Position numbers and translations under genes: made by a program
Part shown: piece after piece, positions 10,736-19,641 of the stretch
Layout: each line of letters opens with the position of its first letter
How positions within the stretch are numbered: position 1 is the first letter of the stretch
Assembly (NCBI GenBank): GCA_021792615.1
Contig: JAJYUJ010000042.1
Coordinates: 1-19,916 of the forward strand
Length of the DNA: 19,916 nt
Reading direction: 5' to 3'
Source of the DNA: a bacterium
Lineage (GTDB): Bacteria > JAMCPX01
Notes under the pieces: model-generated
The model's database searches: none
What the model was told of the DNA's origin: nothing
Seen by the model: only the letters and a program-made list of their open reading frames with translations

Positions 10736-12466
10736 ATGAAACAGCTATTAACAATACTTATTGTCATGACATTTTTGGTAATACCTCTGCGCGCACGTGC
10801 AGATTCAGAGGGCAATGCAAGGACAAGCCTTATCGAGGGGAATGTCTATCTCAAGGCAGCGGACACGAACAATGAATGGCAGTCTGTTACCATAAACACA
10901 CCGGTTATGCAGGACGACGCGTACTGGGTTGCTGAAGGCGGAAAAGCGGAAATCCAGTTCTTCGGAAGTTCATACCTGCGTGCAGACCAGAACACCGAAT
11001 TTCATGTAACAAGTCTTGACGGTTCTTCAAATACGGTCATCATAAGCCTCCAGAGCGGCAGGGTTTACATAGACCGGCAGGACAGCCCGCAGGGCACGTT
11101 CTTCGAGATTGATGCACCGCTTGTCTCTGTTGATGCGGACAGGAGCGCACGGTTCGATGTAAATATAAGCAATGACGGTGATACGGAAATCTCTGTAATC
11201 TCTGGCAGTGTGAACATTGACTCGGAATCGGAGAGCACCACGATTTATGCCGGAGACATGGTCGCTGTCAGCAATAGCGGGGCTGCCGAGGTGTCGTCGT
11301 ACCTGCCCGATGACGAATGGATAAGCTGGAACGCTTCACAGGATGACATGCTTGCAGAAAACTCCCGGAGCGCAGCATACCTTCCTCCATCCCTTGCTGA
11401 CTACAGCTACGAATTCGATAACAATGGGAACTGGACATACATCACGGATTACGGCTATGTATGGACACCCGTTATCGTTACACCGGACTGGGCACCGTAC
11501 AGCATCGGCAGATGGGCATGGATAGGCGGAAATTATGTTTGGATATCATATGAGACATGGGGATGGGTCCCGTATCACTACGGCAGATGGGCATACAGGA
11601 CAGGAATAGGATGGTTCTGGGTTCCGCCTTCTGCACAGCAGGTCTACTGGTGCCCGGGAGCGGTTGCATGGGACTACACGTCAAACTATGTTTTCTGGGT
11701 ACCGCTTGCACCGGGCGAAGTGTACTATGGATATGGATATTATGGACCCAACAGTGTCAATCTGAGAAATGTCAATAGAAGAGCCATCAGGACTGCGCCG
11801 TATTATGAGAACGCAAGGATTTCCAATGCAGTTACGGTTGTCAGCAGACAAACATTTGTTTCAGGACGTGTATACACCAGGCTGAGAATCCCTGAAAACC
11901 CATTTACGCAGGGCAAGGCTATTGCTATGGTAAGACCCCCTGAAAGAGGCACTTTACAGTCAGGAAGACAGTTCAGGCAGGTTACCCCGCCCCAGGTGCC
12001 AAACAGGCAGATAGGCGTAGTTGCACACCGGCAGCCGCAGCGACAGTTCAGGCAGGTTACACCGCCCCAAATTCCACAGATGCCAAACAGGCAGATAGGC
12101 GTAGTTACTCACCGGCAGCCGCAGAGACAGTTCAGGCAGATTACACCGCCCCAAATTCCACAGATGCCAAACAGGCAGATAGGCGTAGTTACTCACCGGC
12201 AGCCACAGCGACAGTTCAGGCAGATTACACCGCCCCAAATTCCACAGATGCCAAACAGGCAGATAGGCGTGGTTGTACAACGGCAGCCGCAGCGACAGTT
12301 CAGGCAGGTTACACCGCCCCAAATTCCACAGATGCCAAACAGGCAGATAGGCGTGGTTGCGTGGCCACAACAGCGTGCAGCAGGCGCTCAAAACCAACAG
12401 TACAGATACAGGGAATCTTCACAGCCGATGAACAGAAGGATGGAAAACATCCAGACATTCAGATAA
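10736..12466 (+). CDS. Exported FecR-domain/DUF6600 protein with C-terminal tandem repeats
   Basis: A 576-aa secreted protein. A signal peptide (1-22) ends in an A-x-A motif (ARA before D23). About 30-180 is a FecR-like beta domain (SLIEGNVYLK, GGKAEIQFFG, LQSGRVYI, FFEIDAPLVSVDAD). About 220-340 is rich in Trp, Tyr and Gly, with recurring GYVWTPVIV, GRWAWIGGNYVWI, GWVPYHYGRW and YVFWVPLAPGEVYYG, the pattern of DUF6600. The tail (411-547) is five copies of a Gln/Pro/Arg-rich repeat, then a short disordered end. A strong AAGGAGG precedes the ATG. There is no adjacent sigma factor or TonB receptor, so this is not a FecR anti-sigma system. It most likely acts in the periplasm or at the envelope surface; function unknown. 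Confidence 0.82.
   Translation: MKQLLTILIVMTFLVIPLRARADSEGNARTSLIEGNVYLKAADTNNEWQSVTINTPVMQDDAYWVAEGGKAEIQFFGSSYLRADQNTEFHVTSLDGSSNTVIISLQSGRVYIDRQDSPQGTFFEIDAPLVSVDADRSARFDVNISNDGDTEISVISGSVNIDSESESTTIYAGDMVAVSNSGAAEVSSYLPDDEWISWNASQDDMLAENSRSAAYLPPSLADYSYEFDNNGNWTYITDYGYVWTPVIVTPDWAPYSIGRWAWIGGNYVWISYETWGWVPYHYGRWAYRTGIGWFWVPPSAQQVYWCPGAVAWDYTSNYVFWVPLAPGEVYYGYGYYGPNSVNLRNVNRRAIRTAPYYENARISNAVTVVSRQTFVSGRVYTRLRIPENPFTQGKAIAMVRPPERGTLQSGRQFRQVTPPQVPNRQIGVVAHRQPQRQFRQVTPPQIPQMPNRQIGVVTHRQPQRQFRQITPPQIPQMPNRQIGVVTHRQPQRQFRQITPPQIPQMPNRQIGVVVQRQPQRQFRQVTPPQIPQMPNRQIGVVAWPQQRAAGAQNQQYRYRESSQPMNRRMENIQTFR
11966..12376 (+). repeat. Five tandem 75/84-bp coding repeats
   Basis: In-frame direct repeats inside the FecR/DUF6600 gene. 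Unit 1 (11966-12040) is 75 bp; units 2-5 (12041-12124, 12125-12208, 12209-12292, 12293-12376) are 84 bp. Each encodes RQFRQ[V/I]TPPQ, then IPQM in units 2-5 (V in unit 1), then PNRQIGVV and a variable end. Units 2-4 are nearly identical in DNA, which suggests recent expansion and likely copy-number variation among strains. Confidence 0.95.
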
Positions 12467-18494: not shown

Positions 18495-18992
18495 TTAAGC
18501 TTTCTCAACTGTTTTAATCTCATCCTCGGTGAGATCATATAATCTGTACACTATCTGGTCTATCAGCTTATCTGTGGCGTTTATCTTATTTTTTAAGGGG
18601 CTGATTACTTCGACACTTTTTTTAAATTGCGCATTTAATGCCTCTTGGAATTGTCGATTTGAAGGATCTTTTGACAACTTTTGTTTGTTTTTTTTCAGGA
18701 CGTTCAGAAAAGAATCGAAATCATTATCATAATATTCTTTTAGTGCAGTCTTATTTGTCAGTGTCTCTATATCTGCTCCGATTTCCCGCTCAAGCCATTT
18801 CAGGAAGCCCTTAATCTCTTCATACTTTGTCTTGTTCATTTCAATCATCTGTTCTGCAAGGAACGCGAGGATGTCATGGACGACGTCAGAGCGATTGGCT
18901 GAGATCTCTGCCTCAACAAATGAGATCATTTCCTGTAGAGGCAATTCATGAATTGCTCTGTCTTGGTGTAGTTTGTCAGAAGATTTTTTCAT
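18495..18992 (-). pseudogene. C-terminal remnant of a type IIG restriction-modification enzyme
   Basis: About 165 codons from an ATG at 18992 (the frame is open to 19064). The segment ILAFLAEQMIEMNKTKYEEI, then KGFLKWLEREIGADIETLTN and the end LIDQIVYRLYDLTEDEIKTVE resemble, from memory, the extreme C-terminus of Eco57I/type IIG fused endonuclease-methyltransferases. No catalytic methyltransferase (NPPY) or nuclease motif is present, so it cannot be an active enzyme by itself. The first residues include AIHELPLQ, encoded by a mobile palindrome at 18941-18956, so the N-terminus is probably not native. Its start overlaps the end of the transposase gene by 17 nt. Expression as a small helical protein remains possible. 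Confidence 0.6.
18935..18960. repeat. Palindromic REP-like element inside the type IIG remnant
   Basis: A perfect 16-bp palindrome GCAATTCATGAATTGC (18941-18956), preceded by TGTAGAG and followed by CTGTCTTGG. It matches the palindromes in the neighbouring transposase gene and encodes AIHELPLQ on the minus strand. Confidence 0.75.
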
Positions 18993-19641
18993 AATAATCC
19001 TTCGCCCTCCCCTCCTGCAGGGGTAATTCACGAATCGCACTATTTTCAGGATTTTCAATGTCATCTTCCCATTTCAATGGATTGTTCACAATGTATTCAC
19101 GGATCTTGCCTAAAGATGCTTCATTACGAATAACGTGTTCGTAATAATTGCGCTGCCAGACAGAAATACCGGCTGTATTTCGCAGTCCATTAATGTGCTT
19201 TGCAGAATTCATTTTAAAGAATCCCATAATTCTTGGGATTACCATATTCCGCCGTTCGATCTTATTCTTCTGTAGGGGTAATTCATGAATTACCCGTTTT
19301 GATGACAATTCACAAATTGCCTTGTCTTTGGGCGGTTCGTGAACCGCCCCTACATTGCCGGTGGTCAATACAATTATTCCATGTACATGGTTCGGCATGA
19401 CGACAAATGCATCCAATGCAATATCTTTATATTTATGATTTAATTCCACCCACCATTTCTCAACCAATTTTCCTGCACTATTTAATCTCATCTCTCCATT
19501 CGAAATATCCCCGAACATACATTCCCTGTTTTGCGAACACACTGTCACAAAATACGCCCCTGCCTGCGAATAATCATAGTATTTTAACCTTGTAGAGTAT
19601 CGGCAATGAAGTGGAAGATTGTAAAGGGATAATTCCTTCAT
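18976..19641 (-). CDS. REP-associated tyrosine transposase (Y1/HUH, RAYT-like)
   Basis: A 221-aa single-strand transposase related to IS200/IS605 TnpA. N-terminal STRLKYYDYSQAGAYFVTVC and NRECMFG are RAYT hallmarks. The HUH motif is H85-V-H87 in MPNHVHGIIVL, and the nucleophile is Y166 or Y167 in VWQRNYYEHVIRN. The end IREYIVNNPLKWEDD is conserved. Residues 97-124 are encoded by an 84-bp palindromic element inserted in frame between the HUH block and the catalytic Tyr helix. A second palindrome encodes AIRELPLQ near the C-terminus (residues 202-209), after the normal family end. All catalytic residues remain, so the gene may be active and could mobilise the palindromes. No IS200-like terminal structures were seen bounding the gene. 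Confidence 0.88.
   Translation of the reverse strand: MKELSLYNLPLHCRYSTRLKYYDYSQAGAYFVTVCSQNRECMFGDISNGEMRLNSAGKLVEKWWVELNHKYKDIALDAFVVMPNHVHGIIVLTTGNVGAVHEPPKDKAICELSSKRVIHELPLQKNKIERRNMVIPRIMGFFKMNSAKHINGLRNTAGISVWQRNYYEHVIRNEASLGKIREYIVNNPLKWEDDIENPENSAIRELPLQEGRAKDYYEKIF
19013..19040. repeat. Degenerate palindromic REP-like element at the 3' end of the transposase gene
   Basis: CCTGCAGGGG followed by GTAATTCACGAATCGC (19023-19038), a degenerate version of the palindrome at 18941-18956 (3 differences). It encodes IRELPLQEG on the minus strand within the transposase C-terminus. Confidence 0.6.
19271..19354. mobile_element. 84-bp palindromic MITE/REPIN-like element inside the transposase gene
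   Basis: Bounded by inverted ends TGTAGGGG (19271-19278) and CCCCTACA (19347-19354). Inside are a perfect 20-bp palindrome (19276-19295), a degenerate one (19305-19320), and a hairpin with a 9-bp stem and GT loop (19330-19349). Its length is 28 codons and the minus-strand frame is open, so the host gene stays intact. No target-site duplication is obvious. It looks like a non-autonomous element mobilised by the RAYT that contains it. Confidence 0.7.

What the first reader, a model, noticed from the sequence alone, without database searches (positions are those of the whole stretch)
19271..19354. 84-bp palindromic element inserted in frame in its likely own transposase
The element has TGTAGGGG/CCCCTACA inverted ends and three internal palindromes, is exactly 28 codons long, has no stop in the coding frame, and lies between the HUH motif and the catalytic Tyr. 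RAYT proteins are known to be linked to REP palindromes near their genes; a copy inside the coding sequence that leaves the protein readable is unusual and could affect or regulate the enzyme.
Basis: partly seen in the sequence, partly recalled or inferred. Interest (0 to 1): 0.65.

Follow-up and report, generated by a model that had tools for sequence, protein, structure and literature searches.

The report
REP repeat inside its own transposase
A REP transposase gene carries, in frame in a floppy loop, a copy of the kind of small palindromic DNA repeat it is thought to move; this arrangement is already described for this transposase subclass, but comparison of 103 related genes suggests that the DNA sequence of the loop repeat, not the peptide it encodes, is what is conserved.

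Summary
Window 19271-19354 (84 bp) is an in-frame, stop-free composite of two inverted GTAG-footed REP palindromes plus a decayed third. It lies inside a REP-associated tyrosine transposase (RAYT/TnpAREP) gene (18976-19641, minus strand), between the HUH motif and Tyr183. Two more copies follow: one in frame near the RAYT C-terminus (19016-19040), one in the next ORF (18934-18958). Of 103 homologues, 77 have a REP hairpin in the same linker. Cores differ between genes, track the RAYT tree (31 changes vs 53 shuffled) and recur in the gene's flanks (31/77 vs 4.9 expected). In one seven-gene clade from five phyla the 28-bp REP is identical base for base: codons invariant at 8/8 shared residues inside, 6/47 outside. 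In several genomes the linker REP is the only double-foot copy found. That fits a DNA element maintained or renewed in the gene better than a merely tolerated scar, but no function is shown.

The parts
18976..19641 (-). RAYT / TnpAREP gene, 221 aa, HUH-tyrosine (Y1) nuclease
   Evidence: PF01797 25.2 bits over the 23-bit cut-off; NCBIfam REP_Tyr_transpos E 3e-19 but under its cut-off, 69.2 of 80 bits; fold match 4er8
19381..19392 (-). HUH motif NHVH (residues 84-87)
   Evidence: N84, H85, H87 invariant in a 16-sequence alignment
19271..19354 (-). 84-bp in-frame REP composite (about residues 96-124) in the linker between HUH and Tyr
   Evidence: linker pLDDT <50
19330..19353 (-). first REP unit in gene orientation, GTAGGGGCGGTTCACGAACCGCCC
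   Evidence: exact match to GGGYRRTTCRYGAAYYRCCC
19306..19322 (-). degenerate middle REP-like palindrome
   Evidence: I2, 88% complementary to the copy at 18939-18955
19272..19295 (-). second REP unit, inverted, GGGTAATTCATGAATTACCCCTAC
   Evidence: exact match
19016..19040 (-). further REP copy, in frame in the RAYT C-terminal tail (peptide SAIRELPLQEG); no matching residues in homologue L048
   Evidence: alignment
18934..18958 (-). further REP copy inside the next ORF (peptide DRAIHELPLQE)
19078..19095 (-). YIVNNP motif with the inferred catalytic Tyr183
   Evidence: Y183 and N187 invariant; matches the subclass 2.4 signature YIxNNP
19153..19158 (-). WQ motif (residues 162-163)
   Evidence: invariant; subclass 2.4 signature
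18495..19064 (-). downstream ORF; its C-terminal part resembles the C-terminus of proteins of about 550-1020 aa in other genomes, so probably a gene remnant

Best explanation
The 84-bp element is a doublet of GTAG-footed REP sequences in inverted orientation, with a decayed third unit between them, sitting in the disordered linker of a subclass 2.4 TnpAREP (RAYT). Shown: it is in frame, of REP type, shares its core with two more copies in the same locus and a few in the genome, and homologues carry REPs of their own type at the same place. Inferred: RAYT activity put a copy of its own substrate into its own gene; only insertions without a stop and at this loop survive, because the loop lies outside the HUH-Tyr core. 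Inferred with less certainty: the REP is then kept or renewed at DNA level rather than left to decay, so the gene carries its cognate substrate with it when it moves between species; it may also bind the RAYT at its own gene or mRNA.
For: Linker hairpins (score >=9) in 63 of 103 homologues, against 4 in the N-terminal and 6 in the C-terminal part, with the linker only 17% of codons; GTRGGG/CCCYAC feet in 86. Strict REP hairpin in 77; linker core recurs within 300 bp of the gene in 31/77 (shuffled mean 4.9, max 10). Core type follows the RAYT tree built without linker columns: 31 changes vs 53.1, 0 of 200 shuffles as low. Left feet use frames 0 and 1 (52, 25) and never the stop frame. In a seven-gene clade the 28-bp REP is identical: codons invariant at 8/8 shared residues inside vs 6/47 outside, Fisher p 2.5e-6. 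The same REP DNA is read in two frames in L099 and L115, giving different peptides. G036, G075, G082, G083 and G084 each have exactly one double-foot REP in the assembly and each holds a RAYT with one in its linker; in G009 both are in RAYT linkers. G055 has 132 exact copies of the core pattern, the listed ones identical to its linker core. Motifs NHVH, WQ and YIVNNP match subclass 2.4.
Against: The window's own genome has only 5 exact copies of the core, 2 of them in this element, so recent amplification by this RAYT is not evident. The middle unit is decayed, which fits drift as well as maintenance. 26 of 103 homologues lack a strict linker REP, so it is not essential to the enzyme. Identity of the REP between species could come from renewal by dispersed copies rather than selection on the gene copy. 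No RAYT of this subclass was tested biochemically here.
Confidence: 0.78

Rival explanations
1. Neutral tolerance: REPs land all over the genome and the disordered linker is simply the one place in the RAYT gene where an in-frame copy does no harm. The copy has no role and decays or is replaced at random.
For: Linker predicted disordered; the stop-causing frame is absent; the middle unit in the window is decayed; another ORF is also hit in frame (18934-18958) and GTAG REPs inside other genes are published (PMC3733652); Quentin 2018 favours little impact on activity.
Against: Invariant REP DNA in a clade whose other shared codons have diverged; linker REP present where no other double-foot copy exists in the assembly; 77 of 103 genes carry one.
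Confidence: 0.42
2. Cis-regulatory or cis-acting element: RAYT binds the REP hairpin in its own gene or mRNA and limits its own expression or marks its own locus.
For: DNA-level conservation; same DNA in two frames; RNA fold z -4.4; RAYT binds REP hairpins (4er8).
Against: Many homologues do without it; no expression data; position in the gene body is unusual for an operator.
Confidence: 0.3
3. Original part of the protein: the peptide is functional and the palindromes are a coincidence of its coding sequence.
For: A segment is found in many homologues at the same position.
Against: Peptides differ from gene to gene while the palindromic DNA plan stays; the same DNA is read in different frames; homologues with 7-14 residue linkers exist; linker pLDDT <50.
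Confidence: 0.03
4. A Rickettsia-RPE-like selfish palindrome unrelated to the RAYT, which happened to hit it.
For: In-frame palindromic inserts in unrelated genes are known (RPE, cited in PMC3733652).
Against: GTAG feet, match between linker and flanking REPs, and core type following the RAYT tree.
Confidence: 0.04

Closest known systems
TnpAREP subclass 2.4 with intragenic REPs (Quentin et al. 2018, PMC6006769)
   Same: HUH-Y1 enzyme with NH[IFV]H, WQ and YIxNNP motifs; GTAG-foot REPs inserted in frame between HuH and Y; variable region peripheral; scattered over phyla
   Different: Here the insert is a doublet with a decayed third unit, plus a further in-frame copy in the C-terminal tail and one in the next ORF. 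The codon-level and sole-copy analyses made here were not seen in the parts of that paper I read.
GTAG-tagged REPs inside genes (Di Nocera et al. 2013, PMC3733652)
   Same: GTAG-footed short palindromes lying in open reading frames
   Different: That paper stresses replication and repair genes; here the host gene is the RAYT itself
Rickettsia palindromic elements (RPE)
   Same: Palindromic repeat inserted in frame and translated
   Different: RPEs carry CGTC ends (PMC3733652), hit many unrelated genes and are not tied to a transposase of their own
REPIN / BIME (Bertels and Rainey 2011, PMC3116915)
   Same: Two REPs in inverted orientation with a spacer
   Different: Normally extragenic and numerous; here intragenic and low in copy number

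Membership tests
RAYT / TnpAREP | IS200-like Y1 transposase fold with HUH and Tyr | tested here: met
   PF01797 over cut-off; best fold match 4er8; invariant H85, H87, Y183. NCBIfam REP_Tyr_transpos is below its cut-off, 69.2 of 80 bits.
RAYT / TnpAREP | gene flanked by or associated with REP sequences | tested here: met
   REP copies at 19016-19040 and 18934-18958; the upstream flank is cut at 275 bp by the contig end
RAYT / TnpAREP | binds and cuts its cognate REP | not testable with these tools
   needs biochemistry
TnpAREP subclass 2.4 | motifs NH[IFV]H, WQ, YIxNNP | tested here: met
   NHVH, WQ, YIVNNP in the window protein; signature from the table in PMC6006769
TnpAREP subclass 2.4 | in-frame REP insertion between HuH and Y | tested here: met
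TnpAREP subclass 2.4 | placement in the published subclass tree | not tested
   reference sequences of that tree were not at hand
GTAG-type REP | hairpin with a GT[AG]G foot | tested here: met
   GTAGGGG...; both outer units carry it
GTAG-type REP | high copy number in the genome | tested here: not met
   5 exact copies in 2.54 Mb, 2 in this element
Rickettsia RPE | CGTC end | tested here: not met
   ends are GTAG

The most novel reading that the evidence does not exclude
In subclass 2.4 RAYT genes the linker REP is not a tolerated scar but a built-in cis element held at DNA level: each gene carries its own cognate substrate inside its coding sequence, so that enzyme specificity and substrate travel together, and specificity could be read off the gene itself.
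Probability: 0.42. Interest if true: 0.72.

Novelty: new member of a known kind. Interest (0 to 1): 0.45.

Why it matters
RAYTs and REPs are long-lived partners whose means of spread is still unclear. If each subclass 2.4 gene carries a copy of its own substrate, many enzyme-substrate pairs can be listed from sequence alone and the recognition code tested directly. It also gives a rare case of a coding sequence in which a DNA (or RNA) structure seems to be conserved over the peptide.

Tried and rejected
Rfam search of the locus gave nothing. A first codon test grouped genes by the REP sequence itself, which biases it towards identity; it was replaced by a clade defined without the linker. Idea that orphan single REPs elsewhere mark dead RAYT genes: of 20 stretches fetched around REP copies, only the two chosen as RAYT loci (G009, G036) matched a RAYT; the other 18 did not. 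Search for a relative of the neighbouring ORF with an empty site gave only C-terminal matches. The window protein was not placed in the published subclass tree.

Full report
What is there. The window ends in a minus-strand gene, 18976-19641, of 221 codons. Pfam calls it Y1_Tnp (PF01797, 25.2 bits, cut-off 23); NCBIfam's REP-associated tyrosine transposase model matches at E 3e-19 but stays below its cut-off. An AlphaFold2 model from 16 sequences has a confident core (blocks within residues 21-90 and 131-200 at pLDDT 76-98) and its best PDB match is 4er8, the RAYT bound to a REP hairpin. The conserved motifs are NHVH (84-87), WQ (162-163) and YIVNNP (183-188).

The element. Between NHVH and Tyr183 lie 84 bp, 19271-19354, without a stop. 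In gene orientation they read as a GTAG-footed palindrome (GTAGGGGCGGTTCACGAACCGCCC), a decayed palindrome, and an inverted second one (GGGTAATTCATGAATTACCCCTAC). Both outer ones fit GGGYRRTTCRYGAAYYRCCC exactly. Shuffling shows this is not chance. Residues 97-127 have pLDDT under 50. Two more copies of the core follow in the same locus: 19016-19040, in frame in the RAYT tail where homologue L048 has no matching residues, and 18934-18958, in the next ORF, whose C-terminal part matches the ends of larger proteins. The genome of 2.54 Mb has five exact copies in all, two of them in this element; the backwards control has none at zero mismatches.

Homologues. I aligned 103 distinct relatives from whole genomes and from 80 named contigs of many phyla. 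Most have extra DNA at the same place, and it is REP-like: hairpins scoring 9 or more occur in the linker of 63 genes, against 4 and 6 for the rest of the gene, although the linker is only 17% of codons. A stricter test finds a REP hairpin in 77. The cores differ: RRTTC as here, GTAT, ACG, GACG, GAAWA and others. Retrieval ranked loci by similarity to the whole window protein, so the fraction may be somewhat biased; the trait is not universal, and a few relatives have linkers of 7-14 residues.

Cognate pairing. For 31 of the 77, the linker core is found again within 300 bp outside the gene, against 4.9 when genes and flanks are shuffled. On a tree built without linker columns the core types need 31 changes, against 53.1 for shuffled labels, none of 200 as low (most inner branches are weak). 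So the REP in the linker is of the kind that belongs to the enzyme's clade and locus.

DNA rather than peptide. Left feet are read in two frames and never in the frame that gives TAG, as expected if only readable insertions survive. Identical REP DNA is read in different frames in L099 and L115 and gives unrelated peptides. A clade of seven genes (97% SH-aLRT, from Nitrospirota, Chloroflexota, Planctomycetota, Cyanobacteriota and Thermodesulfobacteriota; 54-68% identity) carries the same 28 bp without a difference. Among columns where all seven share a residue with a choice of codons, the codon is the same in all seven at 8 of 8 positions inside the REP and 6 of 47 outside (Fisher p 2.5e-6). 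An earlier version of this test grouped genes by the REP itself and is not relied on.

Copy number. In G055 the core pattern occurs 132 times. At the other end, G036, G075, G082, G083 and G084 have one double-foot REP each; each of these genomes holds a gene whose linker contains such a REP, and for G036 the position was confirmed. G009 has two, both in RAYT linkers. The pattern counts only double-foot copies with exact feet, and most of these are draft genomes. Still, renewal of the linker REP from dispersed copies is hard to see there.

Prior work. Quentin et al. 2018 (PMC6006769) describe in-frame REP insertions between HuH and Y as a feature of TnpAREP subclass 2.4, with motifs NH[IFV]H, WQ, YIxNNP, and judge them likely of little impact. 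Di Nocera et al. 2013 (PMC3733652) describe GTAG REPs inside genes and mention Rickettsia RPEs. The window is therefore a new member of a known kind.

Judgement. Identity as a REP doublet in a subclass 2.4 RAYT is well supported. How it got there (the enzyme acting on its own gene) is inferred. Whether it is kept for a purpose is open: the codon result and the sole-copy genomes favour maintenance; the decayed middle unit here, the homologues without REP and the lack of any functional data favour tolerance.

Noticed in passing
window 11906-12409: Five tandem 84-bp repeats in the ORF 10736-12466, coding a 28-residue unit (RQPQRQFRQVTPPQ...). The period equals the length of the REP element, apparently by coincidence.
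   Followed up: no
window 18495-19064: Short ORF whose C-terminal part resembles the C-terminus of larger proteins (about 550-1020 aa) elsewhere; probably a remnant next to the RAYT.
   Followed up: partly
G000:C21:45848 and G000:C74:3116 (L166, L167): Two double-foot REPs with other cores (GAGGT, TTGAT), one copy each, with no RAYT match in the surrounding 4 kb.
   Followed up: partly
G005 (L172-L177): A same-family genome in which no RAYT was found at E<=0.001 has six double-foot REPs, each with a different core, one copy each.
   Followed up: partly
L124, L126, L129, L105 linkers: Linker peptides with tandem expansions (for example ERAGLERAGLERAGLE, NCAPTNCAPTNCAPT), suggesting repeated duplication of REP-derived units.
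   Followed up: no
G024 and G017: Genomes with many RAYT-like matching stretches each (15 and 10).
   Followed up: no
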